A stretch of 64,000 nt of DNA from Gloeocapsa sp. PCC 7428 (GTDB taxonomy: Bacteria; Cyanobacteriota; Cyanobacteriia; Cyanobacteriales; Chroococcidiopsidaceae), in assembly GCF_000317555.1 (NCBI RefSeq), contig NC_019745.1, positions 2,542,001 to 2,606,000 of the forward strand. Direction: 5' to 3'. This document shows positions 4,930 through 64,000 of the stretch, in pieces. Position 1 is the first letter of the stretch; each line of letters opens with the position of its first letter. A program made the position numbers and the translations under genes. The notes under the pieces were generated by a model, which was given only the letters and a program-made list of their open reading frames with translations, was not told the DNA's origin and did not search any database.

Positions 4930-5074
4930 ACGCGTACAGCCAAAAGAGGTGAAGTATGAATATTATCCTGCAACCTTCAGCTTTTAGCTGCATAACTAAT
5001 TGCGACGATTAAATTAAGTACAATTCGTTGGGTATTAAGGCTGTGTTTGAAAAATCTCCTAACTTAATATTTAC

Positions 5075-5299: not shown

Positions 5300-5329
5300 A
5301 ACCTTCTCTCTTCTGCTTCTTTAAACTAG

Positions 5330-9933: not shown

Positions 9934-10020
9934 GGAGAGGTGGCCGAGTGGTTGAAGGCGCAGCACTGGAAATGCTGTTTGGGGGCAACTTCAACGAGGG
10001 TTCGAATCCCTCCCTCTCCG
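9934..10020 (+). tRNA. tRNA-Ser (anticodon GGA)
   Basis: The 87-base sequence folds as a class II tRNA. The acceptor arms GGAGAGG and CCTCTCC plus a G discriminator enclose a D-arm with GGCCGAGTGGTTGAAGGC, the anticodon stem-loop CAGCA-CTGGAAA-TGCTG, a long variable arm (GGGGGCAACTTC region) and the T-arm GGTTCGAATCC. The anticodon GGA reads UCC/UCU serine codons. The CCA end is not encoded. The tRNA ends one base before the stop codon of the convergent truB gene. Confidence 0.97.
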
Positions 10021-46772: not shown

Positions 46773-46912
46773 ATTAGAGGTCAGGGGTCAGAGGTCAGAG
46801 ATCGGGGCTAGCTGATCAATACCATAGGTACAAACACAAGGCGTCTTCTTCATAGAATTTCTATCTGACCTTTGATCTCCAACTTCTTTTCATATTAGGA
46901 GAAGCTATTCAA

Positions 46913-48844
46913 ATGCCTGTTGAAACAAACAATAACAAGCGCTCGAAAAAGCCGCCACAAGCACGGCAATTCGGAGGCAGCTTGCTGATTTTATTTACGA
47001 TACTTTTGCTACTAAACTTTATTGTGCCAAGCTTTGGTCCGCGTTTACCGCAAGTTTCTTACAGCGATTTTATTGCGCAAGTCGAAGCGGATAAAGTCGA
47101 TCGGGCAATTGTTGGTAGCGACCGCATCGAGTTTGCACTCAAATCCGAAACACCAGAAGAAACGGGTCAAGCTTTTACCACAACACCAATTGCGATTGAC
47201 TTAGATCTTCCCAAAATTCTTCGCGACCATAATGTTAAATTTGCGGCTCCAGCACCGAATAATAATGGTTGGATTGGCACAATTTTAAGTTGGGTGATAC
47301 CGCCATTAATTTTCTTTGGAATTTGGGGATTTTTAATTAACCGTCAAGGTGGCGGTCCTGCTGCGTTAACGGTTGGTAAAAGTAAAGCGCGTATCTACTC
47401 CGAAGGAACTACCGGAGTTAAATTCGGTGATGTCGCCGGAGTTGAAGAAGCTAAACAAGAAGTCCAAGAAATTGTTGATTTCCTCAAAAATGCGGGTAAA
47501 TATACTCGACTTGGAGCGAAAATTCCTAAGGGAGTTCTACTTGTCGGACCTCCAGGAACAGGAAAAACCTTACTCGCAAAAGCGATCGCCGGTGAAGCGG
47601 GTGTTCCTTTCTTTAGCATTTCCGGTTCAGAATTTATCGAGTTATTTGTCGGTGTCGGTGCAGCGCGCGTCCGCGATCTATTTGAACAAGCGAAGCAACA
47701 AGCGCCTTGTATCGTCTTTATTGACGAGTTAGATGCTTTGGGTAAATCGCGAGGCGGTGCTAACGGCTTTGTTGGCGGTAACGACGAACGCGAACAAACG
47801 CTAAACCAGTTGCTTACCGAAATGGATGGTTTTGATGCGAATACTGGCGTAATCATCATCGCCGCGACAAACCGTCCTGAAGTGCTAGATCCTGCGCTAC
47901 GCCGTCCAGGAAGATTTGACCGTCAAGTTGTTGTCGATCGCCCTGATAAAGTCGGTCGCGAAGCGATTCTCAAAGTTCATGCACGGAATGTGAAGTTAGC
48001 GGATGATGTCGATTTGCTAACCGTTGCCGGACGTACCCCAGGCTTTGCGGGAGCCGATTTGGCAAACTTAGTGAACGAAGCCGCACTTCTCGCCGCCCGC
48101 CAAAATCGCGAAGCTGTGTCGATGAGTGACTTTAATGAAGCAATCGAGCGTGTCGTGGCTGGTTTAGAGAGGCGATCGCGCGTTCTCAATGAAAATGAGA
48201 AAAAGACCGTTGCTTACCATGAAGTTGGTCATGCGATTATCGGTGCTTTGATGCCTGGTGCGGGTAAAGTCGAGAAAATCTCAGTGGTTCCTCGCGGTGT
48301 AGGTGCATTAGGTTATACCGTACAAATGCCCGAAGAAGACCGCTTTTTAATGATTGAAGATGAGTTACGCGGGCGGATTGCAACGCTACTTGGCGGACGC
48401 TCTGCTGAAGAATTGATTTTCGGGAAAGTATCTACAGGGGCGAGTGATGACATTCAAAAAGCTACTGATTTAGCAGAACGCGCTGTGACACTTTACGGTA
48501 TGAGTGATGAGTTAGGTCCAGTTGCTTTTGAGAAAATCCAACAAGAGTTTCTCGGCGGTTTTAGCAACCCGCGTCGTTCAGTTAGCCCCAAAGTTGCAGA
48601 AGAAATCGACCGCGAAGTCAAAGAAATCGTTGATGGAGCGCATCACATTGCTTTAAGCATTTTGGCTCAAAATCGCGACTTGTTAGAGGAAACGGCACAG
48701 ATCTTATTGCAGCAAGAAATCCTCGAAGGCGAAAAACTACGCGAACAACTGAAAAAAGTGCAAGCACCATCCGAGTTAGATGAGTGGCTGCGTAGTGGCA
48801 AGTTATCTCCTGACAAGCCTTTGATGCAATCAGTTTTGGTGTAA
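46913..48844 (+). CDS. ftsH: ATP-dependent zinc metalloprotease FtsH
   Basis: This 643-residue membrane AAA+ protease has two membrane helices (about 22-40 and 122-143) flanking a periplasmic/lumenal domain. Walker A GPPGTGKT lies at 212-219, Walker [11 protein letters not shown] near 267-276, the [23 protein letters not shown] starts near 318, and the zinc site HEVGH is at 436-440. It degrades photodamaged D1 and misassembled membrane proteins; cyanobacteria have several paralogues. A good ribosome-binding site (AGGAGAAG) precedes the ATG. A HIP1-based terminator follows. Confidence 0.95.
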
Positions 48845-48863
48845 GTGAGACTAAAGAATTAAG

Positions 48864-48897
48864 GCGATCGCTTCTCATGCAAGGGCGATCGCTTTTT
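48864..48897 (+). terminator. ftsH terminator made of two HIP1 octamers
   Basis: GCGATCGC at 48864-48871 pairs with GCGATCGC at 48885-48892, followed by TTTTT. It begins 19 bases after the ftsH stop. Confidence 0.78.
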
Positions 48898-48909
48898 CTT
48901 GTCAATAAA

Positions 48910-49011
48910 TAGACTTCTTGCATGAATCACAAACGCCCTCTGACTGAAGTCAGGGGCTACTCAAGCAAAGTGTACTTTCGTACACTGAGGCAAGACTTTT
49001 ATCAATAAGTT
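48910..49011 (+). repeat. 102-bp interspersed repeat, copy 2 (MITE-like)
   Basis: It matches 22999-23100 at 101 of 102 positions in the same orientation, about 26 kb away. Confidence 0.85.
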
Positions 49012-49160
49012 GACAGTGGTAGATTGTCTTTTGTTTGGCTGTGAATTTATTCATCAAGCATTCATGCAGGAGGTTTAATCAATGCGTGTGAGTCTCGCCC
49101 TCACCCTAAATCCCTCTCCCAAACTTGGTAGAAGGACTTTGACAGAACGCTTTTTGGCAC

Positions 49161-49475
49161 TCAATCTTCTGTATCTAACCGCCGAATTCTTCGCTGTAAT
49201 TCAATTTCTTGCGAACTACAAATTGTTTCCAAATCAGCGACTCGCTGTTCTAAGTTCTTGATACTATTTGCCAAATTGTTACTTGCGTCATTATCTGAGC
49301 TACGCCAAACGGCAACTGTACCAATAGCGGCACCTGTCACTACCGCTAATGGCAGAATAGGACCACTTCTAGTAACAGGGACTAACGGAATGCAGATCGC
49401 AAGCATACCTGTCGCAAAGCCCCAGATTTTGCCGGTAGCTGAAACGCGGATATCTGTCTCGGAGTTACTTGCCAT
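49161..49475 (-). CDS. Small membrane protein with C-terminal coiled coil
   Basis: This 104-residue protein has a short polar N-terminus, two hydrophobic helices (about 16-33 and 38-57) and a charged, heptad-patterned C-terminus (NNLANSIKNLEQRVADLETICSSQEIELQRRIRRLDTED). This pattern of two helices then a coiled coil recurs in small cyanobacterial proteins of unknown function. It is monocistronic. Confidence 0.65.
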   Translation of the reverse strand: MASNSETDIRVSATGKIWGFATGMLAICIPLVPVTRSGPILPLAVVTGAAIGTVAVWRSSDNDASNNLANSIKNLEQRVADLETICSSQEIELQRRIRRLDTED

Positions 49476-49960
49476 AAAATAGTAGATTCTACATTAAATA
49501 AACAAAAGTTTTAATAAACTAAGATTCGCTCTATTCCTGCTTAGTCAGGTTAATACACGGCGTTAGGTCTAATGCTGCAAGTATTATTCTTGAGCTAGCA
49601 AGACCTGATAAAAATTCACTCTATCTTTAGATTAATCTCTCTAGGTAGATGACCGAGGTAAATAAAGTTTTAACAATATTATTTATAAGTGAAATTAATT
49701 AGTGAGCAGAGTGATTCTGCATTTGGGTACAGCGTAACGGGCTTTCAGCCTAGTGGTACTAAACTTTAGCTCAGGTAGAAACAACAAGCGATCGCTTTCA
49801 AGTTGTTGGTCACGGTTACAACCAATTTTGGGTTGCTTGAGTATCAAAGCTTTAGTGAATAATAATCATTTTCATAAAGAAAATTGACCCCACTATTTAG
49901 CTGTATTGCAACATTGTTGCGCATAAAAAAAGAGTTGAGGGGGGCTTTTAAGCTGCAATT
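49476..49960. other. Intergenic region upstream of gntP
   Basis: AT-rich and without ORFs. At 49857-49873, GAATAATAATCATTTTC resembles a degenerate Fur box (consensus GATAATGATAATCATTATC) but the context is not iron-related. A HIP1 site lies near 49790. Confidence 0.45.
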
Positions 49961-51307
49961 ATGTCACCTGGTGTATTAATTCTAATCGCGATGCTCGGCA
50001 TCGGCTTACTGCTGTTTCTGGTAATGGGTTTAAGGCTACAAGCATTCGTAGCTTTGCTCTTGAGTAGTTTATTCGTTGCGGTTGCAGCAGGAATACCTTT
50101 AAATGAGATTGCCAGCACAATTCAACAAGGTATGGGGAACACCCTTGGCTTTATTGCGATTGTGGTTGGTTTGGGTACGATGTTTGGCGAGATGTTACGC
50201 GTGTCTGGCGGCGCGGAACAATTAGCAAATACTTTAGTAAGACGCTTTGGACAAGATCGCGCGCAGTGGGCGTTAGGCTTGACAGGATTTTTAGTCGCAA
50301 TTCCTGTCTTCTTTGATGTTGGTTTAATTATTCTGATTCCGCTGGTGTACAGTTTAGCGCAACGGACTGGAAAATCGTTGCTGTATTATGCCATTCCCTT
50401 AACCGCAGGGTTAGCAATCACTCACAGCTACATTCCACCAACGCCAGGTCCGGTTGCGGTTGCGTCATTAATTAATGCGGATCTGGGTTGGGTGATTTTG
50501 TTTGGTGCGATCGCGGGTTTACCGGCAATGATCGTCGGTGGTGTCTTCTTTGGTAAGTACATCGGCGGGAAAATCCACGTGAAAGTGCCAGAATACATGA
50601 TCATTGACGCACCAGAAAAGGAAGTGGCAAAAGACCCACCGCCGTTTGGTATAATCGTTGCCATTATTGCAATTCCACTTTTACTGATTTTGCTCAATAC
50701 TGTTTCTGGAATTTTGTTACCAGAAGGTAATTTTGTCCGTAATTTACTCGGATTTTTAGGACATCCATTTACCGCGTTACTTCTTGCGGCGCTTGCTTCG
50801 TTTTATTTATTAGGAACTCGACGCGGTTACACGCCAGATGAAATTCAAACTATCGCAACAAAATCGCTCGAACCAGTAGGATTGATTATTTTAGTTACAG
50901 GTGCGGGTGGTGTTTTTGGCAGAGTTTTGGTAACAAGTGGCGTCGGTGATGCGTTAGCCGGTGTCATGGCGGCATCAAACTTACCGATTATTCTTCTTGC
51001 GTTTCTTATTGCGACTGCGGTACGAGTTTCGCAAGGTTCGGCAACAGTATCAATGGTAACAGCCGCAGGAATTATGGCACCCGCAATCGAAGCAGGGAAT
51101 TATTCTGCACCAATGGGTGGGTTAATTACAATTGCGATCGCATCCGGTGCAACCGTACTTTCCCACGTTAACGATTCAGGTTTCTGGTTAGTCAGTCGTT
51201 ATCTCGGATTATCTGAGAAAAATACACTACGTTCGTGGACAGTCATGGAGACGATCATTGGTTTGGTGGGCTTTTTGATCGTGTTTTTGATCAGCTTTTT
51301 TGTGTAA
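49961..51307 (+). CDS. gntP: Gluconate:H+ symporter, GntP family
   Basis: This 448-residue membrane protein has about 12 hydrophobic segments. GntP hallmarks are IAIVVGLGTMFGEMLRVSGGAEQLANTLVRRFG, PVFFDVGLIILIPL near residue 107, THSYIPPTPGPVAVASLINADLG near 145, the cytoplasmic KVPEYMIIDAPEKEVAKDPP, and RVSQGSATVSMVTAAGIMAP near 352. It imports gluconate or related sugar acids with protons. The gluconokinase gene follows 105 bases downstream in the same direction, forming an uptake-and-phosphorylation unit. Confidence 0.93.
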   Translation: MSPGVLILIAMLGIGLLLFLVMGLRLQAFVALLLSSLFVAVAAGIPLNEIASTIQQGMGNTLGFIAIVVGLGTMFGEMLRVSGGAEQLANTLVRRFGQDRAQWALGLTGFLVAIPVFFDVGLIILIPLVYSLAQRTGKSLLYYAIPLTAGLAITHSYIPPTPGPVAVASLINADLGWVILFGAIAGLPAMIVGGVFFGKYIGGKIHVKVPEYMIIDAPEKEVAKDPPPFGIIVAIIAIPLLLILLNTVSGILLPEGNFVRNLLGFLGHPFTALLLAALASFYLLGTRRGYTPDEIQTIATKSLEPVGLIILVTGAGGVFGRVLVTSGVGDALAGVMAASNLPIILLAFLIATAVRVSQGSATVSMVTAAGIMAPAIEAGNYSAPMGGLITIAIASGATVLSHVNDSGFWLVSRYLGLSEKNTLRSWTVMETIIGLVGFLIVFLISFFV

Positions 51308-51412
51308 CTAAGTAGCGAATGGGTAATGGGTAATTCTAGATGAATATTATTTCCAATTACCAGTTACCAATTTACTTACGTTTATTTTCACCCACTGACT
51401 AATCCTAAATCT

Positions 51413-52960
51413 ATGAGTCAAACTTACTTTCTCGGTGTTGATATTGGCACCACGAGTACAAAAGCGATTGTTTTTTCGGCTTCAGGTGCAATTAAAGGTA
51501 TGGGGAATCGGGGATATAAAATTATTGTCCCCAAACCCACTTGGGCAGAACAAGACCCTGAAGCAATTTTTTCCGCGGTGATTGCAGCAGTGCGCGATGC
51601 AGTAGATGCAGCAGAAATTTCAAAATCGGCGATCGCCGCCTTGGGCTTTAGCGCAGCAACACACAGTTTAATCGCCGTTGATGCCAAAAACTATCCTTTA
51701 ACAAATGCCATTATTTGGGCAGACAATCGCAGTATTCATCAGACAGAATTCCTCAAGCAACAAGATCTGAAACACGATCTTTACTTGCGTACCGGAAGCC
51801 CGATTCATCCAGTTTCCGTTGTCACAAAGTTGATGTGGATGCGCGAATCGAACCCAGATGTTTTTGAGAAAGCTGCTAAGTTTATCTCGATCAAAGAGTA
51901 TATTTTCTATCAATTATTCGAGCGCTACGTGATTGATTACTCGATCGCATCAGCGACAGGGTTACTCAATTTAAAACAGCTTGATTGGGATACCGAGGCG
52001 CTGCAACTTGCCGGAATACGTGCAGAACAATTGAGTGAACTCGTTTCGCCAACGCACGTTTTGCGGGGGATGAAAACACGTTATGCAGAAGTTATGTGCA
52101 TTGCACCTGATACACCCGTTGTGATTGGGGCAAATGATGGTGTTTTAGCCAACTTGGGAGTTGGAGCGATCGCTAAAGGCGAAGTCGCGATTACGATTGG
52201 TACGAGTGGTGCAGTGCGCACGGTTGTAGATACACCACTAACGGATGAGAAAGAAAGAACGTTTTGTTACGCTTTAACTGAAAAACACTGGGTTATCGGT
52301 GGACCCACAAATAATGGTGGAATTGTTTTACGGTGGTTTCGCGATAACTTTTGCGCGCCAGAAGTCGCAAAAGCGAAGCACTTGGGGGTAGATCCGTACG
52401 ACTTGATGATTGCGTCGGCGATGGAAGTTTCTCCAGGCGCTGAAGGTTTGTTGTGTTTACCTTATTTATCAGGCGAACGCGCCCCGCATTGGAATGCGAA
52501 AACACGTGGTTTATTTTTTGGTGTGGGATTACATCACGGGCGATCGCATTTTGTCCGCGCAATTATAGAAGGCATCTTATTTAACGTTTACAGCGTTAAC
52601 GTCGCTTTACAAGAACTTACCGGAGATATTAAAGAAATTCGTGCTTCGGGTGGTTTTGCGCGTTCGACTCCTTGGCGACAACTAATGGCAGATTTGTTTG
52701 GAATTGAAGTACTTATGCCAGAAGTTTATGAAGGAAGCGGGTTTGGTGCAGCAGTCTTAGCAATGTATAGTGTCGGTGCGATCGCCGCTTTCGCTGACGT
52801 GCAAAAATTAATTCGCATTACCTATCGTCATAAACCTAATGCACATTTAGTCAGCACATATCACGATCTGTTCTCGTTGTACGAACGCTTGTATCAAAAC
52901 TTAGAAAATGAATTTAGTGCGATCGCCGATTATCAAAGCCAAGCAGTTAAGAGGAATTGA
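51413..52960 (+). CDS. gntK: Gluconokinase, FGGY family
   Basis: This 515-residue carbohydrate kinase has the ATPase-fold phosphate-1 loop GVDIGTTSTKAIVF at 8-21, ALGFSAATHSLIAVD, WADNRS near 101, the phosphate-2 region VAITIGTSGAVRTV near 260, the FGGY signature region (IRASGGFARSTPW near 404), and GSGFGAAVLAMY. It makes 6-phosphogluconate, which enters the oxidative pentose phosphate or Entner-Doudoroff route. Pairing with gntP supports gluconate over xylulose or glycerol, though FGGY enzymes are easily misassigned. Confidence 0.9.
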   Translation: MSQTYFLGVDIGTTSTKAIVFSASGAIKGMGNRGYKIIVPKPTWAEQDPEAIFSAVIAAVRDAVDAAEISKSAIAALGFSAATHSLIAVDAKNYPLTNAIIWADNRSIHQTEFLKQQDLKHDLYLRTGSPIHPVSVVTKLMWMRESNPDVFEKAAKFISIKEYIFYQLFERYVIDYSIASATGLLNLKQLDWDTEALQLAGIRAEQLSELVSPTHVLRGMKTRYAEVMCIAPDTPVVIGANDGVLANLGVGAIAKGEVAITIGTSGAVRTVVDTPLTDEKERTFCYALTEKHWVIGGPTNNGGIVLRWFRDNFCAPEVAKAKHLGVDPYDLMIASAMEVSPGAEGLLCLPYLSGERAPHWNAKTRGLFFGVGLHHGRSHFVRAIIEGILFNVYSVNVALQELTGDIKEIRASGGFARSTPWRQLMADLFGIEVLMPEVYEGSGFGAAVLAMYSVGAIAAFADVQKLIRITYRHKPNAHLVSTYHDLFSLYERLYQNLENEFSAIADYQSQAVKRN

Positions 52961-53076
52961 ATCTGAAACATTTTAAGCCTTAGGTTCAATCCTCAACTTA
53001 CATGGCGATCAGAGTGGGATGACAAGGTTCTTGCTAAGAGTTTATCGTAACTGGATAAAACTACGAATGAACACTT

Positions 53077-53991
53077 ATGGTTCCCCAGTTAAGTAGACGT
53101 ACATTTTTATCGTTGAGTTTAGGAACGACTGCTTTCTTTTTTGGTAGTAAATTGCAACCCGCCTCAGCAAAGTCTACAGCATCTGTAATGAAGTCAAATC
53201 AGGTGCAGTTGAGTCATGGTGTGACTCTAAATTACGTTGAGAACCAACCGTCTTTTAAAGATTCAGATGCGATTATTTTCCTACATGGATACACAGACTC
53301 TTGGCGATCATTTGAACGTAATTTACCTTTGTTATCAAACAAGTTTCGCATATTAGCAATTGACCAACGTGGTCATGGTAACTCTTCACGTCCCTCCTGC
53401 TGTTATACGCAAGCTGACTTTGCTGCGGATATTGAGGCGTTTATGACTGCTTTGAAAATCGACAAAGCTACTCTTGTTGGTCATTCAATGGGAGGGTTTA
53501 TTGCGCACAAAGTTGCAGTAGACTATCCGCAACGCGTCCAGCGATTAGTGCTGATCGGTGCTGCACCTACCGCAGTGAGAAACCCAGTAATTAAAGAGCT
53601 TAATAATACTATTCAAGCGCTAGTCGAGCCGATTGATCCTGGCTTTGTCCGCGAATTTCAAGCGAGTACCTTTTATAAACCGATTCCACCTGCGTTTTTA
53701 GATACTGCGATTTCTGAAAGTTTGAAAGTGCCACTGATAGTATGGAAACAAGCTTTAGCAGGGCTGATTGTCGAAGATTATGCTACGCAGTTAAACCAGA
53801 TCGAAGCACCGACATTAATTTTATGGGGCGATCGCGATGGTATTGTAACGTTGCAAAACCAACAAGCCCTCCAAGCTCAAATTCCCAATTCCACTTTAAA
53901 AATCTACCGCGAAACTGGACATGGTTTACACGTCGAATCTCCCCAGCGATTTGTCCGCGATTTGTATCGTTTTATGTGGAGATCGCGCTAA
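53077..53991 (+). CDS. Exported alpha/beta hydrolase (Tat-type signal)
   Basis: This 304-residue protein has the N-terminus QLSRRTFLSLSLG...SA, with a twin-arginine motif and Ala cleavage near residue 31. The alpha/beta hydrolase fold includes LHGYTDSWRSFE, DQRGHGNSS, the nucleophile elbow GHSMGG with Ser137, WGDRDGIV and GHGLHVESP for the catalytic Asp and His. It could be an esterase, haloperoxidase-like or lactonase-type enzyme; the substrate cannot be told. It stands alone. Confidence 0.88.
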   Translation: MVPQLSRRTFLSLSLGTTAFFFGSKLQPASAKSTASVMKSNQVQLSHGVTLNYVENQPSFKDSDAIIFLHGYTDSWRSFERNLPLLSNKFRILAIDQRGHGNSSRPSCCYTQADFAADIEAFMTALKIDKATLVGHSMGGFIAHKVAVDYPQRVQRLVLIGAAPTAVRNPVIKELNNTIQALVEPIDPGFVREFQASTFYKPIPPAFLDTAISESLKVPLIVWKQALAGLIVEDYATQLNQIEAPTLILWGDRDGIVTLQNQQALQAQIPNSTLKIYRETGHGLHVESPQRFVRDLYRFMWRSR

Positions 53992-54291
53992 GCTGTTAAA
54001 TATTTCAGTTGCTAGTTTAGATTGCAGACGAGGAAGAGAGCACAGGAGTGCAGAAGAAGGTTTCCAAATTTGCTCAAAATTTTAAATTATGCAAGTTAAA
54101 TACGCTTTAGCTTAACAAAATAGCCAGTTACCTGCGGATTACAGGTGTGTGATTTGCTGAACCAGTACGGAGTTTATTGCACCACAGTACCTCGATCGCC
54201 ATCGATAGGATTTCGCCTGCTGATATCTGAACGCGTTTAGAAACCACTATTGTGTGAGGTAAAAATATCGTCATGAGTTGACACCTCTGAA
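53992..54291. other. Intergenic region
   Basis: About 300 bases between the hydrolase and the convergent HlyD-like pseudogene. No gene, repeat or hairpin with a T-run is recognised. Confidence 0.5.
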
Positions 54292-55642
54292 CTACTGAGG
54301 AGGAGGACCACCGCCAGGAAGACCGTCCTTTGGAGAGCTACCTGCTAAACTTGGCAATGAAATACTAGACTGAGATTGAGTTTTGGAAGGAAGCTGAATC
54401 AATATTTTTTCTGTTCCGTTTAGTCCAGTCTTTACCTCGGTAAGATTGTTAACGGTTGCTCTGGTTGTGATGGGAGTAAATACAGGTTGTTGATTTGCAC
54501 TCGCAACAAAAACACCTGTGGTATTTTGCTGATGCACAACCGCAACTGTAGGTACGGCGATCGCATTCTGCAACTGACCAACTTGGAACTTTACAGATAC
54601 ATTCATTCCGGATCGCAACAGCTTCTCGGAATCGGAAAGGAGCGCAATTTTTACCTCAAAGCTAGTGACATTTTGCGCCACGGTAGCCTCAGTCGCGATT
54701 TGCGTAACTCGTCCCTGAAACGTTTTGCCAGGATAGGCATCTGCCGCGATCGCGACTTGTTGACCAACGCGAATTTGGGAAATGTTGTTCTCCGCAACGT
54801 TGGCTACAACCTGATTCGTGGCAGCCAATGACAGAATCGATGATGAAGTTGCCGAGGAAACCGCACTACCTGCCGTCGTTGGCGTGACAAAGGCACCTGG
54901 ATCGGCATACTTGCGACTCACAACTCCACTAAATGGCGCTCGAATTACCGTATCAGCGATCTGCGTCTGGATCGTTTGTAGCGCACCTTGCGCCGACTGT
55001 ACCTGATGCACGCGCCGCCGCAATATCTTCTTGGCGCGATCCAGCTTGAGACAGCGCGAGAGCTTGCTGTGCTTCGATTACTTGGGCTTGAGCCGTAGCG
55101 CGAGCGGTGCTAGCTTGGTTGTAAGCTTGGCGAGAAATTGCCCCTGCTGTAAAAAGTTCTTGATTGCGGCGCAAATCATCTTGGGCTTGGGCAATATCTT
55201 CTTTGCGATTTCCTGCTAGCAGTTTCGCTAAATTAGCTTGAGCAACCGCGAGTTGTCCCTGTAAATCAGAGTCATCCATGTAGGCGATCGCTTGTCCCTT
55301 GCTGACAAAATCACCTTCCTTCACCAACAGGCTTTTCAGAATTCCTGCCGTTTTAGGACTGACATTGATCGTCTGCTCCGGTTCGACAGTGCCATTGGCT
55401 GAAACTGCGATCGTTAAATTCGTCTGTTCGACTGGCACCGCTGCCATGGGTTGTGCTTGCTGTTGGGGCATAAATTGGCGATAGACAAGATAGCTACCAC
55501 CTGCAATCAGAAATAGAGTTAATCCAAATAGCCATTTTGTAATTCTCAGTTTTTTGACAGTTTGAAGCGAGGGCGTGGAGTCAGTTGAACCGAGTAGATT
55601 CGGGTAATTGCTGGGATCGAGAGAATCAAAAGCCATATCCAC
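54292..55642 (-). pseudogene. HlyD/MacA-type efflux adaptor, frameshifted
   Basis: The upstream frame (from 55642) has a membrane anchor (about 36-54), the lipoyl-like half GTVEPEQTINVSPKTAGILKSLLVKEGDFVSKGQAIA, and coiled-coil helices (AQANLAKLLAGNRKEDIAQAQDDLRRN). After EDIAAARA one extra T near 55010 shifts the frame. The product continues as QVQSAQGALQTIQTQIADTVIRAPFSGVVSRK, a beta-barrel and membrane-proximal domain, and a PGGGPPPQ tail. One base restores an adaptor of about 449 residues. The expected MacB-type ATPase/permease is not adjacent. A sequencing error cannot be excluded. Confidence 0.82.
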
Positions 55643-55699
55643 TATTCATCAATTCAATGATGCGAGCTTTTATCTATAAAAATTACGTAATAGAACCGC

Positions 55700-55897
55700 T
55701 TAAGCATACTTACTCTTAAAACGCTCTAGAATTTGCTTAGTACCTTTAATTGCTTTTTCAACTTGTTCGCGTTTCTCCAATTGAATTTTGCTACCCGCTT
55801 GTTCAAAGATTTTTGTTATGACTTTTTCCAAACCTGCTTGCACCTGAGTCATTTGCTCGCAAATTTTCTGATTAATTGTCTGTTCACTCGCGTTCAT
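55700..55897 (-). CDS. Small helical protein
   Basis: This 65-residue, highly charged, all-helical protein (SEQTINQKICEQMTQVQAGLEKVITKIFEQ then EKREQVEKAIKGTKQILERFKSK) has no signal or membrane segment. It lies 97 bases downstream of the ABC exporter gene in the same direction, so it may be the last gene of that operon. Family unknown. Confidence 0.6.
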   Translation of the reverse strand: MNASEQTINQKICEQMTQVQAGLEKVITKIFEQAGSKIQLEKREQVEKAIKGTKQILERFKSKYA

Positions 55898-55994: not shown

Positions 55995-57755
55995 TTAACC
56001 CAGGGGCTTATTTTTGGTAAGAGATAGTGGAATATAATTTGATTCAACCTTGCCATAGTCGAGTTTAACTATGCGATCTGCAAGGTGAAAATAACGGTCG
56101 TCGTGAGTAATAACCAAAACTGTTTTACCGCGTTCTTTTAGCTTGATAAGAATCTCTTTGTAAAAGAGGTCGCGGAAGAATGGGTCTTGGTCAGAAGCCC
56201 ATTCATCGAATAAATAAATCGGACGATCTTCAAGATAAGCTGTTAATAAAGCAAGGCGCTTTCGTTGTCCTTGAGAAAGGCGAGTTGTCGATAAAATACC
56301 ATTTTTTACTTGTACCTTGTGGTCTAACTGCAATTGCTTGAGATAACTTTCAACTTCGCGATCTAAATTCACATGATTGAATCCTAGATAGCGATCGAAA
56401 AGATAGAAGTCAGAAAAGATTACAGAAAAATGCTGGCGATACCACTCGCGGTTTTGCTCTGAGATCGGTACTCGATCGAGATATACTGAGCCACTTTGAG
56501 GTACATACAACCCTGCAATAAGTTTGGCAAGCGTTGATTTACCACTTCCATTGCCACCCACAATATATGTAATTTCTCCCGCTCGCAAGGACAAACTGAT
56601 AGGACCTAGAAGAAATCCTCTTTCTGCAACATCTGCATGATGCATTAACCTACCACTACCTTGATGACGATGAGGAGGACGCATCTCATTTGGTTCGTTC
56701 TCTGGTTGATACATATAAGTCACTGCATCGAGTTCGAGTAGACAATGATGATTGATGTTGTCGGAATCAACAGAATCAAATTCGGCTTGATTAGCTAAGG
56801 ACAGCTTCATTCTTTCAATTTTCTGTAAAGCAATATTGCCTTGCACGAGATCGGGTAATCGCTTCAAGAGGTTTTGCATTGGTATAGCGATAAAGGTACT
56901 AGTCAAGACATAGGTGGATAGCATCGGCATGGGAATGTAAATAAACCAAGGCAAGATGAAAACAATAAATGCCAAACTTGTGAACTGCGAAAACTGCCCT
57001 AACCCGTTGGCGATCGCAAAACTTTTCATTGCAGTACTGTTTTTCTGACGCAGTTTTGCGGCACTTCCCTGCAAGTTCTTCGCGAAAAAATCTTCTCGTC
57101 TTGACTTGTGCAGTTTTAGTTCTTTAATTCCCGTAGTAATAGCTTGAAAATGTTTGAATAAATTATCGTCTTCTTCACGGGCTGCCGCGAACAGATGCCG
57201 CGCCTTGCCGAGTTTCGCTTGAGTACACCAAATGGCAATCGACGTGAAGGCGATCGTCAACACAAATATCGTATTTGATAACCAAGCTAAGTAAACTAAG
57301 CAGCCAAAAATTGTAGCAAGGTCGATACAGAGGTTAGGAATAGCAGAAACGGCGTGCGACAGGACGCGAACATCATCTGTCAATGTGGCGAGTAGACGAT
57401 TTTCTCCAAGTTTTTCTAGATGCTGTAAAGGAGAAGATAAGATATTTTGACCTAATCGCAATCGCAACTGATAAATTGCATTTTGCGAAAGATTAATGAG
57501 CATGAATTGCGAGATAATACTCGTGACAAGAACAAAAAGAGCCAATGCCGCAAAATAAAGCAATGCGTTAGGAAGTGATGCTTGATTGACCGCTCGATTA
57601 ATCAGTGAAATGAGCATCGCATTGCCACTACCACTAATTAAACCTGCAATCGTTGCAATCAAGATATTCCGCCACGATATATCCCAAAGAAATCGAATAA
57701 ATCTCATGCCTGTGTCCTTCCTATAGCGTGATATTTGCCTGGATAAACGAGCCAA
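55995..57755 (-). CDS. Cyclic-peptide-type ABC exporter (fused membrane and ATPase domains)
   Basis: This 586-residue protein has six membrane helices in about 20-320 (ATIAGLISGSGNAMLISLINRAVN and onward). A short linker carries a His-rich insertion (PPHRHQGSGRLMHHADVAER, about 365-385). The ATPase domain has GGNGSGKST near 402, the signature LSQGQRKR near 500, and Walker B YLFDEWASDQDP, the variant typical of cyclic-peptide/siderophore exporters of the SyrD/PvdE type. It lies 133 bases downstream of the type III PKS gene and probably exports that product. Substrate assignment is inference. Confidence 0.88.
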   Translation of the reverse strand: MARLSRQISRYRKDTGMRFIRFLWDISWRNILIATIAGLISGSGNAMLISLINRAVNQASLPNALLYFAALALFVLVTSIISQFMLINLSQNAIYQLRLRLGQNILSSPLQHLEKLGENRLLATLTDDVRVLSHAVSAIPNLCIDLATIFGCLVYLAWLSNTIFVLTIAFTSIAIWCTQAKLGKARHLFAAAREEDDNLFKHFQAITTGIKELKLHKSRREDFFAKNLQGSAAKLRQKNSTAMKSFAIANGLGQFSQFTSLAFIVFILPWFIYIPMPMLSTYVLTSTFIAIPMQNLLKRLPDLVQGNIALQKIERMKLSLANQAEFDSVDSDNINHHCLLELDAVTYMYQPENEPNEMRPPHRHQGSGRLMHHADVAERGFLLGPISLSLRAGEITYIVGGNGSGKSTLAKLIAGLYVPQSGSVYLDRVPISEQNREWYRQHFSVIFSDFYLFDRYLGFNHVNLDREVESYLKQLQLDHKVQVKNGILSTTRLSQGQRKRLALLTAYLEDRPIYLFDEWASDQDPFFRDLFYKEILIKLKERGKTVLVITHDDRYFHLADRIVKLDYGKVESNYIPLSLTKNKPLG

Positions 57756-57888
57756 GAACTTTTGTCAGTCGCAGAGGTGCCGTTCATGCCTGCTCAAGAT
57801 ATGACTTTTGCCGGTCATACCAATTCACTCAAGACAAACTACAAATAATTTCTCCCCTGCACCCCTGCACCGCAAGGTAACTTGCTCA

Positions 57889-59139
57889 CTAAACCTTCTG
57901 AAACAAAATCCCCTCCACCCCAACTCCTGGTGAAAATGAAAAGGCAATTCCAGTCAATGGCTTCATTTCGGTTGAATCTTGCTCGCATCGCTGCAACATC
58001 CGTTCTAAAACGAACAGTACTGAGGGGCTAAGCATATTGCCATACTGACGAAGTATCTCCCAACTATCAGCAACTTGGCGATCGCTCAGTCCAAGAGAAC
58101 GCTGTGCCTTTTCAATAATGCGCGTACCACCAGGATGAACCGCCCAAAGATCGATACTCTCTTTCGTTAGCGCATGGCTGGCTAGAAAACGTTCGATAAT
58201 TGGACCTACACCAGTTTCGATATATTCCGGTAGCTGGCGCGAAAGTTGACAAGTAATGCCATTATCGTGGATGCCAAGAACGATACCATCTTGAGTATCT
58301 TCAACTAGATAACTGAGGTGATCTCGAATCACGACTTTACCTTGAGCGATCGCGCGATCTTCTTCACACGCTCCGATCACCACTGCCGCACACCCATCGC
58401 TAAAAATACTATGAATAACAACATCATTGACTTCATCGGCAAACACTGCGTTGACTGAACTGAGTTCCAAGCAGACGACAAGCGCTTTGTGCGTAGGATT
58501 AGCCCGTACATGATCGCAGGCAACACGCAGTCCATTCATTGCCGCTGCACAACCCATAAAATTCACGGTAACGCGAGCGATATCGCGCCTTAGTCCAAGC
58601 TTTTCGATTAATGCGGTATCTACTCCTGGTGCAACGAAGCCTGTACTCGATACAAAAACGATCAGGCGGATCGAATCTTCAATCTTCAACTCTGATTGCC
58701 AAGGATCGTCAGGATCGATACTTGCAGTGGCAGATAAGAGTGCTTGTTTTGCAACTCGCTCAGCTAAGGGAACTGCATACTCCTGAAACATCTGCATCCG
58801 CGACTGAATCGGTATGTTGTGTCCGCTTAGCGCGATCGCTTCATCGGATAGCAAGTTGACTGCTAAGTGTCTTGTGTCAATGCGAGTATTGCTATAAAGC
58901 TTCTCGATCCGGAATTGATTTTGCTCTAAGGTAGGGAAGTTAGCCACAAATTTAGCCGCATCAGATTGGCGAATGACATTATTAGGAGTGCCAGTTGCAA
59001 TGCTCTCAATCGTGGGTAGTAGCCGCTTTGACCTAATCACACAAAGTTCATCAAGAATCTGGTTTGCTTTCATCTGCGTTGGTGCAACAAAAGGTCGGCT
59101 ATGTGCTGCTTTGTTCATTTCGATAACTTTAGTATTCAT
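57889..59139 (-). CDS. Type III polyketide synthase (chalcone/alkylresorcinol-synthase type)
   Basis: This 416-residue thiolase-fold enzyme has the complete triad: Cys197 in VNFMGCAAAMNGLR, His335 in WAVHPGGTRI and Asn368 in YGNMLSPSVLFV. SSTGFVAPGVDTALIEKLGL and the C-terminal GIAFSFSPGVGVEGILF are standard. The enzyme extends an acyl-CoA (or acyl-ACP) starter with malonyl units to make a resorcinol, pyrone or phloroglucinol. The neighbouring desaturase suggests a long fatty-acyl starter. It lies 72 bases downstream of the desaturase gene. Confidence 0.92.
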   Translation of the reverse strand: MNTKVIEMNKAAHSRPFVAPTQMKANQILDELCVIRSKRLLPTIESIATGTPNNVIRQSDAAKFVANFPTLEQNQFRIEKLYSNTRIDTRHLAVNLLSDEAIALSGHNIPIQSRMQMFQEYAVPLAERVAKQALLSATASIDPDDPWQSELKIEDSIRLIVFVSSTGFVAPGVDTALIEKLGLRRDIARVTVNFMGCAAAMNGLRVACDHVRANPTHKALVVCLELSSVNAVFADEVNDVVIHSIFSDGCAAVVIGACEEDRAIAQGKVVIRDHLSYLVEDTQDGIVLGIHDNGITCQLSRQLPEYIETGVGPIIERFLASHALTKESIDLWAVHPGGTRIIEKAQRSLGLSDRQVADSWEILRQYGNMLSPSVLFVLERMLQRCEQDSTEMKPLTGIAFSFSPGVGVEGILFQKV

Positions 59140-59211
59140 ACAAGCTTTCTCCTTTTTTTACTTACTGCTATAAATTTCAATTTCAGAAGTCCTGTAACAT
59201 CTTGCTTCTCG

Positions 59212-60804
59212 TTAAATTGAACCGATACCAACAATGCCTTTGTAGAGATATTCCGCTGATGTTCGTAATGCTTGTAGGTGAAGATGTTCTTTCAATAGTC
59301 CAATGTTCTTTTCTTTTGCCCACCGTGATGGACCAAACAAGTAATGTTTCACTAAGATTGGCAGGCGATCGATAAAGAAGTTCTTAGGCTGCGACCAAAC
59401 AATATCAAATTTTTCTGCTTCTTCGCGGACAAGGTCTTCGCTAATAACATTGGCAAAACCACTTCTTTGATAAGGAAGAACATGGTGGACGCGATGTGGA
59501 CTCAGACCTGCTGACAGAAAGCAATCAATGTATTTGTTACCAACCATCGTGAGATCGTAGGAGTTTTTAATTTGCGATACTGCCCAGTCTTGTTCCTCAC
59601 TCACATCAGTTGTTTCCTCTTCAAAATCGTGACTAGCAACAATCATGAAGGTACTGATCCACACAGTGAGAATAAATTGTGCAAACCAAGCTGTGAGATC
59701 GCCGTGCAGCCAAAACAGTAACAACTCAGCAAACAGCAGGATTCGCATACTTATCATGCCTACATAATGCGGTAAACCTCGTTGCCAAGAGCCATAGAAG
59801 TCTTTTACGCCATACTTGATGGCATATGTACACATCTCGATTGTGCGAACGAACATACCCGTGAGAACGTGCCCTAACTTGTGTACAGTATGAAGTGGAA
59901 TTCGATAGTAACGAGGCAGTTCCATCATTGCTGTGAAGACATTTTGCTTGACATCAACGTCGCTCTGAGTATATGGATGATGCATCAAACTATGACCGTC
60001 AATAACGACGAAGGACATGGGAACGTAGTTAATATCAAAGATGTGCGCAAATAGTTTATTCCAGCGGACTTGTGCTCGATGGTTGAAGTAGTGACCAGCC
60101 CCTGAAAGCGAGATTCTGAGAGCCGCCATGAGTGGAACAAAGAGATAAATTGGCATATACTGCGTGTTCAATTGCAGCGCTTGCACAAGGATATAGACAA
60201 TGAATAAAATGACGGTGACTGCATCAAAAAGAAAGTCCATTTCAGCAAGCTTTTTTTTCATTTCTGGCTGATTAAGCCTTGCTTTAACCTTATTTAGAAG
60301 TTGCTCTTTGTTTTGAAAATCAAACTTTGGCGTATCTCTCCAACCATCAAAATCATCACGAAATAAGAAGGGTGGAGCGTTGTATTTGGGATGAAAGTCT
60401 TCGCGAGTGGCTTTTCTTCCTAAAGCATATTTCTTAAGAAGTTTTTTAACCTTTTCGGGATTAGGATGAAAGATATTAACGAGTGCCGTAATGTCTCTAT
60501 TTTTCATACGTCCAATGAAGAATTCACCGCCTGGATGCTTCTTAATGAAGTCAGATAAATCGTATGCCTCTCCGTCGTAAATCCATACGCTGGGCATCTC
60601 TTTACTCGTGAACTCAGGTGAACCACTCAAATTCTTTGGAGGCGAATTAGGAATGCGATCGCCCGTAGTATTCTGCTCGTCTATTACCCGATCGCTAGTA
60701 TCTTTGATGCCTGGATCTTGAACAACAGACGCGGGAGATTCTTGTTCATTTTTTCTAAGCTTAAAGATTTGTGTGGTCTTAAAAACCTGTGATATTGCAT
60801 TCAT
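59212..60804 (-). CDS. Cytochrome b5-fatty acid desaturase fusion
   Basis: This 530-residue protein has a disordered N-terminal tail (1-70) and a cytochrome b5 domain (about 70-135) with HPGG at 90-93 and a second heme His113. The membrane desaturase follows, with three His boxes: GHYFNHR (His238, His242), GHSLMHH (His271, 275, 276) and HRVHH (His437, 440, 441). The last box begins with His, not the Gln of classical front-end desaturases. It desaturates or hydroxylates a fatty acyl or lipid chain using electrons from its own b5 domain. It probably feeds the type III PKS. Confidence 0.9.
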   Translation of the reverse strand: MNAISQVFKTTQIFKLRKNEQESPASVVQDPGIKDTSDRVIDEQNTTGDRIPNSPPKNLSGSPEFTSKEMPSVWIYDGEAYDLSDFIKKHPGGEFFIGRMKNRDITALVNIFHPNPEKVKKLLKKYALGRKATREDFHPKYNAPPFLFRDDFDGWRDTPKFDFQNKEQLLNKVKARLNQPEMKKKLAEMDFLFDAVTVILFIVYILVQALQLNTQYMPIYLFVPLMAALRISLSGAGHYFNHRAQVRWNKLFAHIFDINYVPMSFVVIDGHSLMHHPYTQSDVDVKQNVFTAMMELPRYYRIPLHTVHKLGHVLTGMFVRTIEMCTYAIKYGVKDFYGSWQRGLPHYVGMISMRILLFAELLLFWLHGDLTAWFAQFILTVWISTFMIVASHDFEEETTDVSEEQDWAVSQIKNSYDLTMVGNKYIDCFLSAGLSPHRVHHVLPYQRSGFANVISEDLVREEAEKFDIVWSQPKNFFIDRLPILVKHYLFGPSRWAKEKNIGLLKEHLHLQALRTSAEYLYKGIVGIGSI

Positions 60805-60849
60805 ATTTTTCTAATGCTCCTTAATGTTGTAAGCTGTCCTCATAAACTC

Positions 60850-60981
60850 TCAGTAAGCTTCTTTGTGTAATTGCGACTTCTTTTTATTGGTTCTTAGCGC
60901 TAATGCGATAATTACTAAGCTGGGAATCGATTCAATCAATAAACTAACAGTTAGAAAAATTGACCAGAAATTAGCGTACAT
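60850..60981 (-). CDS. Small membrane peptide, first gene of the PKS cluster
   Basis: A 43-codon ORF from ATG 60981 to TGA 60850 is preceded by a perfect AGGAGG (60986-60991), 4 bases from the ATG. It encodes MYANFWSIFLTVSLLIESI..., one hydrophobic helix (about 5-29) followed by a basic tail (RTNKKKSQLHKEAY). The stop lies 45 bases before the desaturase start in the same direction. It is too short for routine gene calls. It may anchor or partner the desaturase; the function is unknown. Confidence 0.7.
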   Translation of the reverse strand: MYANFWSIFLTVSLLIESIPSLVIIALALRTNKKKSQLHKEAY

Positions 60982-61935: not shown

Positions 61936-62167
61936 AGCTTTAAATCAAATCGATATATCCAGAAATAGATGACAAGGTAATTCGTTTTGTGGAAAAAAAG
62001 TAGTTAGTATTTTTATAAAAAATCTTAAGAAATCAAGTAATTAATAGTGCTCATCCTTACTTTGTTGTAGGTTTTACGTAGCATGGTTTGATTAAATTTT
62101 ATACATAATCATCAGTTTAATTTTTGTTCGCTATAAAAAATAATTTGTTAAGGAAACCAAGTCGGTG

Positions 62168-64000
62168 ATGACGAGAAACTGGTTCGGTTGGCGTTGGCAG
62201 TTGACGTTATTGGGTTGGATAGCTTTTGTTGGGGTGGTAGGAGGAGGCGATCGCACCGTAGCTCAAGTCACTGCCGATCCTTCAGTAGGAACAACAGTTA
62301 CAGTCAACGGCGATACCTTTGAAATTACGAATGGTACAACCGTTGGTGGCAAAAATCTCTTTCACAGTTTCAGTAATTTCAGTATTCCCAATGGTGGAAC
62401 TGCACACTTTGTCAATGCGCCTACAGTTGCCAATATTTTGGCACGAGTCACGGGTGGTAATCCTTCAGATATTCAAGGACTAATTCGGGCAGAGGGTAAT
62501 GCGAATCTATTTTTAATGAATCCCAATGGCATTTTATATGGATCAAATGCACAGCTAGACCTTGGCGGTTCCTTTGTGGCAACAACTGCGAATGCGATTC
62601 AGTTTCCTGGTGATGCAGAGTTTTCGCAAAATTCACCTGTGGCTGCGGATAATTCGTTGCTGAGTGTCAACCCCTCTGCTTTTCTGTTCAATCAAATTGC
62701 TGCCCAACCGATTATTAACCAATCTCGATTAGGTTTGCTAGTTCCTGTTGGTAAAAGCTTGTTATTATTGGGCGGCAATATTGGGCTAGCTACCGGAAAG
62801 CTATTTGCTCCAGGTGGTCGCATCGAGTTAAGTAGTGTAGCAGGAGTGGGAGCAGTAGGACTAAATGTAGATGAAGGTATACTCCGCTTGGGTTTTTCTG
62901 ACGATATTGTTAGAGGAGATATATCGCTTACTGAACAGTCTGAAGTTGATGTTCGCGCTGGCAGTGGTGGTGACATTGCCATTAACTCTCGTAATCTAAA
63001 AGTGTTAGCAGCTAGCCGAGTACGAGCAGGAATATTACCAGGATTGGGTTCACTTGACAATCAAGCAGGAGATATTAATATCAATGCGACAGGTGAAATA
63101 ACTCTTGCAGACGAATTAACTTCAATTTCAAATGTAGTACAGCAGGGCGCTATCGGTAATGGTGGCAATATCAACATTGTTACTCGGTCACTTTCTCTCT
63201 TTGATGGCGCTCAATTAGTGACAACTACTTTTGGAAGAGGGAATGCAGGTAATTTGCAGATCGAAGCTAGTGATGATGTGGCGATCGCTGGGGTGAGTAA
63301 AAGTGACAATAGCCGCTCTAGTAGTCTCTTTAGTAGCGTACAAGCTGAAGCTGTAGGAAGAGGAGGTGATATTGAGATTAACGCTGGAACGCTAGCTGTC
63401 ACCGATGGCGCTCAAATTATTACGCTTACCGCTGGAGCAGGAGACGCAGGTGATATACAGATCAAAGCTAGAGACAACATTACGTTTGCAAGGGTGAGAG
63501 GAAACGGTCTTGCTAGTGGTGCGCTCACTAGGGTGGATATCAACGCAAAAGGGAGAGGTGGCAACATAAATATTGAAGCCGAAACCCTATCAATTACTGA
63601 TGGCGCGCGATTGAGTGCTAGTACATTTGGAACAGGAAAGGCTGGCAATGTGTATATTAATACTCGTGATGCTGTTATTCTTACTGGAGTCTATCTTTTT
63701 CCGTTTAGAGGTTTAAATATTCCTTATTTAAGTGCTATTGATAGCCTTGTAGGTATAAAAGCAGTAGGGCAGGGTGGTGACATTAGTATTCAAACTAACT
63801 CATTTTATTTAAGTGATGGTGCTGCGCTTTCAACAGAAACACTTGGTCAAGGAAATGCTGGAAACATATCTTTGCAAGCTAAAGACTCTGTTTCTCTCTC
63901 CAACCTTGGTGCTATTTTCGCTAATGTTCAATCAGGAGCAGAGGGTAACGGCGGCAATATTGATATTCAAACACAAACTCTCTCTTTAACAAGCGGTTCT
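62168..64000 (+). CDS. Filamentous-haemagglutinin-type exoprotein (two-partner secretion), N-terminal part
   Basis: The frame from ATG 62168 (or GTG 62165) stays open to the window end, 611 codons, with no stop. A signal peptide (about 1-37, ending VAQ) precedes the TPS domain: NLFHSFSNFSIPNGGTAHF, NIQGLIRAEGNANLFLMNPNGI (the NPNGI motif) and GSFVATTANAIQF. Long repeats follow with the pattern GNGGNI.I.T..LSL.DGAQ...T and GNAGNI.I.A, a beta-helix passenger. It should be exported by a TpsB pore; the partner and C-terminus lie beyond the window. Confidence 0.9.
   Translation, partial: MTRNWFGWRWQLTLLGWIAFVGVVGGGDRTVAQVTADPSVGTTVTVNGDTFEITNGTTVGGKNLFHSFSNFSIPNGGTAHFVNAPTVANILARVTGGNPSDIQGLIRAEGNANLFLMNPNGILYGSNAQLDLGGSFVATTANAIQFPGDAEFSQNSPVAADNSLLSVNPSAFLFNQIAAQPIINQSRLGLLVPVGKSLLLLGGNIGLATGKLFAPGGRIELSSVAGVGAVGLNVDEGILRLGFSDDIVRGDISLTEQSEVDVRAGSGGDIAINSRNLKVLAASRVRAGILPGLGSLDNQAGDININATGEITLADELTSISNVVQQGAIGNGGNINIVTRSLSLFDGAQLVTTTFGRGNAGNLQIEASDDVAIAGVSKSDNSRSSSLFSSVQAEAVGRGGDIEINAGTLAVTDGAQIITLTAGAGDAGDIQIKARDNITFARVRGNGLASGALTRVDINAKGRGGNINIEAETLSITDGARLSASTFGTGKAGNVYINTRDAVILTGVYLFPFRGLNIPYLSAIDSLVGIKAVGQGGDISIQTNSFYLSDGAALSTETLGQGNAGNISLQAKDSVSLSNLGAIFANVQSGAEGNGGNIDIQTQTLSLTSGS

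What the first reader, a model, noticed from the sequence alone, without database searches (positions are those of the whole stretch)
55995..60981. Candidate new lipid-polyketide locus: small membrane peptide, b5-desaturase, type III PKS, cyclic-peptide-type exporter
Four leftward genes (60981-60850, 60804-59212, 59139-57889, 57755-55995) are spaced 45, 72 and 133 bases apart. The PKS has its full Cys197-His335-Asn368 triad, the desaturase all three His boxes and its own heme domain, the exporter an intact ATPase. Known type III PKS loci in bacteria pair with methyltransferases, oxygenases or acyl-ligases. Pairing with a b5-fused desaturase recalls the plant route to sorgoleone, where desaturases supply the starter of an alkylresorcinol synthase. 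The use of a SyrD/PvdE-type exporter for such a product would be unusual. The product class is inference.
Basis: partly seen in the sequence, partly recalled or inferred. Interest (0 to 1): 0.75.

Follow-up and report, generated by a model that had tools for sequence, protein, structure and literature searches.

The report
Desaturase, type III polyketide synthase, exporter cassette
A cyanobacterium carries a small gene set that probably makes a fatty-acid-based polyketide and pumps it out of the cell; the same set, in the same order, occurs in soil actinobacteria, and a tuberculosis-family enzyme whose natural product is unknown turns out to be a derived member of it.

Summary
In detail: all four ORFs are at the stated coordinates with intact active sites. 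The exporter most likely starts at ATG 57707, not TTG 57755. The neighbourhood is conserved. Of 80 fetched loci (14 cyanobacterial, 66 actinobacterial), 80 have the PKS beside the b5-desaturase and 64 also have the same exporter, nearly always in the same order. Larsen et al. 2021 already described cyanobacterial 'type III PKS + cytochrome b5' clusters related to Pks18, so the pairing is not new. What I did not find described: the b5 protein is a desaturase-type fusion; the exporter belongs to a cassette shared by two phyla; an LppX/LprAFG lipid-carrier lipoprotein lies upstream in 65 of 68 actinobacterial loci, while 7 of 16 cyanobacterial loci carry an HlyD adaptor; and Pks18-type mycobacterial operons form one clade among exporter-bearing actinobacteria, with a sulfotransferase instead of the exporter. 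In the window the HlyD gene is frameshifted and the MacB permease is a stub; a same-genus relative keeps only a fragment of the PKS. Product and exporter cargo are inferred.

The parts
60850..60981 (-). 43-aa hydrophobic peptide gene (first gene of the unit)
   Evidence: Homologue only in G014 among the 84 cassette loci searched (60-66% identity); dN/dS about 0.30 over 38 codons; no Pfam or NCBIfam hit
59212..60804 (-). 530-aa cytochrome b5-fused membrane desaturase-superfamily enzyme
   Evidence: Cyt-b5 Pfam hit at residues 72-130; three His boxes invariant in 84 of 84 relatives; FA_desaturase Pfam in 21 of 36 family members, not in the window copy itself; dN/dS 0.12 on the C-terminal part
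57889..59139 (-). 416-aa type III polyketide synthase of the Pks18 clade (catalytic Cys197, His335, Asn368)
   Evidence: Pfam Chal_sti_synt N and C; best solved relatives 7CB3 and Pks18 1TED; tree; dN/dS 0.14
55995..57707 (-). 570-aa TIGR01194-type ABC exporter (fused permease and ATPase); start corrected from TTG 57755 to ATG 57707
   Evidence: TIGR01194 437 bits, cut-off 286; G014 homologue 80% identical starting at this ATG; dN/dS 0.12
55700..55897 (-).
   Evidence: Homologues at E 1e-3 in 6 of 16 cyanobacterial cassette loci (L031, L044, L045, L046, L049, L104): after the exporter or its remnant in five, upstream of the desaturase in L044; dN/dS 0.24
54292..55642 (-). HlyD/RND-type adaptor gene broken into two overlapping frames (54953-55642 and 54292-55023)
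   Evidence: Collinear with the HlyD of L043, L046 and L049 in two frames; an open HlyD gene lies after the exporter in L043, L045, L046, L047, L049, L052, L053
54161..54274 (-). stub of a MacB-type permease gene (first 37 codons matched)
   Evidence: tblastn of L049 MacB residues 1-37, 62% identity, E 6e-7, the only match in the window

Best explanation
This is a biosynthesis-and-export cassette for a fatty-acid-derived polyketide. The b5-fused histidine-box enzyme oxidises (most likely desaturates) a long acyl chain, with its b5 domain feeding electrons. The Pks18-type type III PKS takes a long-chain acyl starter, adds two or three malonyl units and releases an alkylpyrone-type product. The TIGR01194-type ABC exporter moves the product across the inner membrane. 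Beyond it, some cyanobacteria have an HlyD/MacB adaptor system and actinobacteria have an LppX/LprAFG lipid-carrier lipoprotein. Shown: gene content, conserved order, intact catalytic residues, purifying selection, parallel divergence of the three proteins. Inferred: substrate, order of steps, product class, cargo of the exporter. In this genome the second, HlyD/MacB exporter is broken, while the core genes look intact.
For: PKS beside the desaturase in 80 of 80 genome-contig loci, exporter in 64 of 80. Order desaturase-PKS-exporter on one strand in 67 of the 68 exporter-bearing loci, which include 4 loci from other searches. Desaturase, PKS and exporter tree distances correlate within each phylum (Mantel r 0.71-0.90, p 0.001 or less). 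Pks18 (1TED) falls inside the cassette PKS clade; positions matching Pks18 Thr144 and Ala148 are identical in 84 of 84, and Cys205 is Ser in 69 and Cys in 15 (that these line the acyl tunnel is recalled). Larsen 2021 and PMC13141999 report Pks18 as using C6-C20 starters. An LppX_LprAFG-like gene lies 202-799 bases upstream of the desaturase match in 65 of 68 actinobacterial loci, confirmed by Pfam in the three scanned; LprG of that family binds and transfers triacylglyceride and acts with a putative efflux pump (PMC4709180, abstract seen).
Against: No product is reported for any exporter-bearing locus in what I read. The predicted structure of the desaturase is poor (pLDDT 67.6); its fold search had no match at E 0.001, the best being b5 domains, with AlkB monooxygenase at E 1.5, so hydroxylase or desaturase is open. 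The exporter family is named for cyclic peptides, and this genome has two other members over the cut-off elsewhere. The Mantel tests do not correct for species history. The tree is of the quick kind, with long Ectocarpus and outgroup branches flagged by the program. Larsen 2021 argues from cavity size that one clade member (Rivularia) may make resorcinols.
Confidence: 0.62

Rival explanations
1. The product is an alkylresorcinol (aldol cyclisation).
For: Larsen 2021 states that all characterised cyanobacterial type III PKSs make alkylresorcinols, and takes a modelled small cavity in one clade member to favour resorcinols.
Against: Nearest solved relatives are Pks18 and 7CB3 at 369-380 bits; CylI scores 104 bits. 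Pks18 lies inside the cassette clade.
Confidence: 0.2
2. The b5 protein acts after the PKS, hydroxylating or oxidising the polyketide, rather than preparing the acyl starter.
For: Histidine-box enzymes include hydroxylases (recalled); Larsen 2021 suggested oxidation of the PKS product. The profile's b5 region matches, among 45 listed b5-type chains, that of the ceramide fatty-acid hydroxylase SCS7 (E 5e-4).
Against: 21 of 36 family members match Pfam FA_desaturase, but that does not tell substrate or timing.
Confidence: 0.35
3. The PKS makes a small product such as phloroglucinol, as recalled for its nearest non-cassette solved relative, Ectocarpus PKS1.
For: Ectocarpus PKS1 4B0N scores 322 bits against the window PKS and branches next to the cassette clade.
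Against: Pks18 is nearer; partners (desaturase-type enzyme, lipid-carrier lipoprotein in actinobacteria) point to a lipid.
Confidence: 0.1
4. The locus is decaying and no longer works in this strain.
For: HlyD is frameshifted and MacB is a stub; the same-genus G001 keeps only part of the PKS; G014 has a split desaturase.
Against: The window's desaturase, PKS and exporter are open; dN/dS 0.12-0.14 against G014. Cassettes with the exporter but without HlyD or MacB at E 1e-10 exist where 2 kb or more of sequence follows the exporter (L031, L044, L048, L050, L051), so the second exporter may be dispensable.
Confidence: 0.12
5. The exporter carries a separate peptide or lipopeptide and is only a neighbour.
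For: TIGR01194 members are named cyclic peptide exporters.
Against: 64 of 80 loci in two phyla keep it next to the PKS. The window genes from 46059 to 55897 that I scanned gave no peptide-synthetase domain, though flanks of the other loci were not scanned for them. The 43-aa peptide is found in 1 of 16 other cyanobacterial loci.
Confidence: 0.1

Closest known systems
Cyanobacterial type III PKS + cytochrome b5 clusters, clade 3.1 (Larsen, Pearson and Neilan 2021, PMC8086630)
   Same: PKS next to a cytochrome b5 gene, PKS related to Pks18, transporter genes nearby
   Different: That paper names the partner only as cytochrome b5 (no 'desaturase' and no 'HlyD' in the main text), calls the clusters poorly conserved in organisation, and in the passages I read describes no shared exporter, no 65-aa gene and no actinobacterial exporter cassettes
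Mycobacterial rv1371/rv1372(pks18)/rv1373 operon (PMC13141999)
   Same: Desaturase-annotated gene followed by Pks18; related Mycobacterium loci here have the same pair and an LppX_LprAFG-like gene upstream
   Different: No ABC exporter; a sulfotransferase gene follows
Tsukamurella tyrosinosolvens NCTC13231 desaturase-PKS-ABC genes (NZ_LR134450, L041)
   Same: Same three genes, same order, gaps of 10 and 7 bases
   Different: Upstream LppX_LprAFG lipoprotein; no HlyD, 43-aa or 65-aa homologue in the stretch
LprG-Rv1410 lipid export system (PMC4709180, abstract seen)
   Same: An LprAFG-family lipid carrier paired with an inner-membrane transporter
   Different: Rv1410 is called a putative efflux pump, not this ABC type; cargo is triacylglyceride; the comparison applies to the actinobacterial cassettes only

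Membership tests
Type III polyketide synthase (chalcone synthase superfamily) | Chal_sti_synt N and C domains over Pfam cut-off | tested here: met
   80.8 and 80.3 bits, cut-off 27
Type III polyketide synthase (chalcone synthase superfamily) | Cys-His-Asn catalytic triad | tested here: met
   C197, H335, N368
Pks18-type alkylpyrone synthase | Phylogenetic placement with Pks18 | tested here: met
   Cassette rows plus Pks18 form one group, 97*, quick tree, SH-aLRT only, long outgroup rows flagged
Pks18-type alkylpyrone synthase | Long-acyl starter and lactonised pyrone product | not testable with these tools
   Needs enzyme assay; residues matching Thr144 and Ala148 conserved
DpgA (3,5-dihydroxyphenylacetyl-CoA synthase) | NCBIfam equivalog cut-off 425 bits | tested here: not met
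   154.9 bits
Membrane fatty-acid desaturase superfamily | Three histidine boxes | tested here: met
   All eight His invariant in 84 of 84 relatives and present in the window
Membrane fatty-acid desaturase superfamily | Pfam FA_desaturase match | tested here: inconclusive
   Window copy not matched at E 0.01; 21 of 36 members matched
Membrane fatty-acid desaturase superfamily | Fold of the membrane domain | tested here: inconclusive
   Model pLDDT 67.6; no PDB fold match at E 0.001
TIGR01194 cyclic peptide export ABC transporter | Score over cut-off | tested here: met
   437.1 bits, cut-off 286.2
TIGR01194 cyclic peptide export ABC transporter | Cyclic peptide cargo | not testable with these tools
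   No assay; genomic context points to a polyketide
Cyanobacterial b5-associated type III PKS clusters (Larsen clade 3.1) | Cytochrome b5 gene just upstream of a Pks18-related PKS | tested here: met
DevBCA exporter (for the HlyD/permease/ATPase trio of relatives) | NCBIfam DevB and DevA cut-offs | tested here: not met
   L045: DevB 99 of 129 bits, DevA 207 of 296

The most novel reading that the evidence does not exclude
The cassette is an old lipid-polyketide make-and-export module shared by cyanobacteria and mycolic-acid bacteria, with the part that bridges the outer envelope fitted to the host: HlyD/MacB in some cyanobacteria, an LppX/LprAFG lipid carrier in actinobacteria. The Pks18 operons of mycobacteria are a derived form in which the exporter was lost and a sulfotransferase took its place, so Pks18's unknown natural product should be a modified, possibly sulfated and retained, version of a lipid that its relatives secrete.
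Probability: 0.45. Interest if true: 0.75.

Novelty: new variant of a known kind. Interest (0 to 1): 0.57.

Why it matters
Pks18 has a solved structure and reported pyrone activity, yet the molecule made by its operon is still unidentified (PMC13141999, abstract and first part of the discussion). The finding places it in an export cassette found in cyanobacteria and environmental actinobacteria, where the product should be secreted and easier to isolate. It predicts what the exporter carries, what kind of enzyme the b5 protein is, and that an exporter-to-sulfotransferase exchange marks the mycobacterial lineage. It could also give the first alkylpyrone from cyanobacteria; Larsen 2021 wrote that none had been isolated.

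Tried and rejected
Scan of genome contigs with the PKS alone gave no relative; the desaturase alignment worked. The HlyD gene was first thought unrelated because G014 lacks it; L043 and others showed that it belongs. DpgA identity rejected. A DevBCA (heterocyst glycolipid) identity for the cyanobacterial HlyD/permease/ATPase trio was considered and not supported; the permease and ATPase are nearest to MacB, whose cut-off of 966 bits is set for the fused protein and is not reached by the separate pieces. The structure model did not settle desaturase or hydroxylase. Seven literature searches for an earlier description listed only Larsen 2021 and the rv1371/2/3 paper as directly relevant; three of the listings were cut (20 of 24, 15 of 173, 15 of 38 papers shown), and most subscription papers are not held, so an earlier description may exist. 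The species was not established; it is a cyanobacterium by its relatives and by 84 GCGATCGC sites in the window (that these mark cyanobacteria is recalled). The genome-contig scan found 112 relatives and kept 80; the other 32 were not seen. Counts per genus in actinobacteria could not be made.
Full report
Observation. Pfam and NCBIfam give Cyt-b5 for the 530-aa protein, Chal_sti_synt N and C for the 416-aa protein, and TIGR01194 over its cut-off for the exporter. The 43-aa peptide has no family. The exporter probably starts at ATG 57707: the 80% identical G014 copy begins there and several cyanobacterial copies begin MRFIRF.

Conservation near home. The window lies at G000:C1:2542001-2606000. 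Among 100 genomes, the own one included, 28 have a match to the PKS at E 1e-3. It is whole in G014 (80% identity) and a fragment in the same-genus G001 (84%); the others are 22-38% identical, and those with E above about 1e-8 are probably other thiolase-fold synthases (inference). G014 has the unit in the same order and between the same neighbours, with a conserved 65-aa gene after the exporter, but its desaturase is split by a frameshift. G001 keeps PKS codons 32-162 and pieces of a neighbouring hydrolase gene; no desaturase or exporter match was found in the 19.9 kb fetched. Window versus G014 dN/dS: peptide 0.30, desaturase C-terminal part 0.12, PKS 0.14, exporter 0.12, 65-aa gene 0.24. The desaturase is rare in a phylum sample: 2 of 386 genomes at E 1e-5, the own genome included.

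Conservation far away. Searches of the plasmid collection found PKS and desaturase together in Tsukamurella tyrosinosolvens and Nocardia farcinica; in Tsukamurella they are followed by the exporter with gaps of 10 and 7 bases. A scan of genome contigs with a four-row desaturase alignment gave 112 relatives, of which the best 80 were kept: 14 cyanobacteria and 66 actinobacteria by record title. The PKS is beside the desaturase in 80 of 80. The exporter is in 64 of 80. The 16 without it are 14 Mycobacterium loci, L054 (short contig) and L104, which keeps an exporter remnant; in two of the Mycobacterium loci (L101, L111) the contig ends within 80 bases of the PKS, so absence cannot be judged there. 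Adding G014, G176, Tsukamurella and N. farcinica gives 84 loci, 68 with the exporter, 67 of these in the order desaturase, PKS, exporter on one strand; L056 has the PKS first.

Envelope parts. In 65 of 68 actinobacterial loci an LppX_LprAFG-like gene (tblastn with the Tsukamurella protein, E 1e-3) lies 202-799 bases upstream of the desaturase match, tandem in 47 and divergent in 18; Pfam confirmed the family in the three scanned (L041, L066, L108). The three without are L098, L121 and L103, whose contig begins 47 bases before the desaturase ORF. None of 16 cyanobacterial loci has a match. Instead 7 of 16 have an HlyD gene after the exporter. In 5 of these (L045, L046, L047, L049, L052) a MacB-type permease follows it directly, and in 4 (not L046, where about 870 bases of contig remain) an ABC ATPase gene follows that; the ATPase was scanned in L045, L047 and L049 and seen as an ORF in L052. 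L043 has a MacB-type permease match on the other side of the cassette. In the window the HlyD is in two overlapping frames and only the first 37 codons of the MacB permease are matched.

The mycobacterial form. A sulfotransferase match (E 1e-5) lies after the PKS in 12 of the 14 Mycobacterium loci without exporter: within about 30 bases in 9, and about 0.9-1.0 kb downstream in 3 (L109, L114, L122), where I did not identify what lies between. The other two (L101, L111) are cut. None of the 68 exporter-bearing loci has a match in the stretch held, though some stretches end soon after the exporter. Pfam confirmed the family in L112. On the PKS tree (46 rows: 17 cyanobacterial with the window, 22 actinobacterial chosen from 68, Pks18, Ectocarpus PKS1, 5 outgroup; quick method; three long end branches and one row of odd composition flagged) the 6 chosen rows without exporter plus Pks18 form one clade (98*) nested among exporter-bearing actinobacteria, next to a second, exporter-bearing copy from M. 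gordonae. The simplest reading is loss of the exporter; parsimony on the tree does not by itself prove direction. Two cyanobacterial rows (L048, L050) joined the actinobacterial side in that tree without a star; in trees without outgroup the cyanobacteria were one side of a branch (100*) for all three genes. Tree distances of the three proteins correlate within each phylum (r 0.71-0.90, p 0.001 or less; 15-22 rows).

Catalysis. The PKS Cys, His and the positions of Pks18 Thr144 and Ala148 are conserved in 84 of 84 and Asn in 83 (one gap); the Cys205 position is Ser in 69 and Cys in 15. All eight box histidines of the desaturase are in 84 of 84, and the two b5 ligands in 82, with gaps in 2 (L031 and L055 were entered as the C-terminal piece of split genes). 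The window copy misses Pfam FA_desaturase, while 21 of 36 members of the scanned set match it. A simple motif pattern was not fully matched in 5 of 68 exporters (L070, cut by the contig end, and L088, L096, L100, L103, Walker B pattern only); the window's is complete.

Prior knowledge. Larsen et al. 2021 (PMC8086630; abstract, section 13 and search passages seen) reported 16 cyanobacterial type III PKS + cytochrome b5 clusters, a clade shared with Pks18, mixed RND/MFS/ABC transporters, no known product, and noted that the M. tuberculosis cluster has no transporter. The rv1371/2/3 paper (PMC13141999; abstract, introduction and first part of the discussion seen) reports an operon linked to lipid changes, with the molecule unidentified, rv1371 annotated as a possible desaturase and rv1373 a glycolipid sulfotransferase. 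In seven searches of the open library I saw no description of the cross-phylum exporter cassette, the lipoprotein link or the exporter/sulfotransferase exchange; I read listings, not every paper.

Judgement. A functional unit is close to certain; a fatty-acyl polyketide is likely; an alkylpyrone is the best guess; export by the ABC protein is likely. The window locus is a further member of a described group, but the conserved architecture makes that group look different from how it was described.

Noticed in passing
L104:11511-12245 and upstream 4817-7415: In Nostoc flagelliforme the desaturase-PKS pair sits beside a strong VioE match (violacein enzyme, E 5e-93) and two ORFs that look like flavoproteins by their N-terminal motif (not scanned); the exporter there is a remnant and an MFS gene follows.
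   Followed up: partly
L043:12900-13100 and L043/L054 desaturase N-termini: The linker between permease and ATPase of the L043 exporter holds Pro/His/Gly-rich repeats, and the desaturase N-termini of L043 and L054 are Pro/His-rich too.
   Followed up: no
L043:8215-8544, L053:7302-7577: Small Pro/His-rich proteins with similar C-termini lie upstream of the cassette in G176 and Chamaesiphon.
   Followed up: no
window 62165-64000 and L044:12583-15849: The protein divergent from the window locus looks like a filamentous-haemagglutinin type by eye (not scanned); a TPS secretion-domain protein flanks the L044 cassette on its other side. May be coincidence.
   Followed up: no
L051:12476-14938: An FHA-domain ABC-2 transporter lies next to the cassette in L051; sequence clustering put it with proteins at 5 actinobacterial cassette loci, which were not scanned.
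   Followed up: partly
L048:7642-7821: A 59-aa ORF upstream of the desaturase resembles the 65-aa gene by eye.
   Followed up: no
window 9934-10020: A tRNA gene, the only Rfam match in the window at gathering scores.
   Followed up: no
G000:C1:1686617 and G000:C1:4252095: Two more TIGR01194-type exporters over the cut-off elsewhere in the same genome.
   Followed up: no
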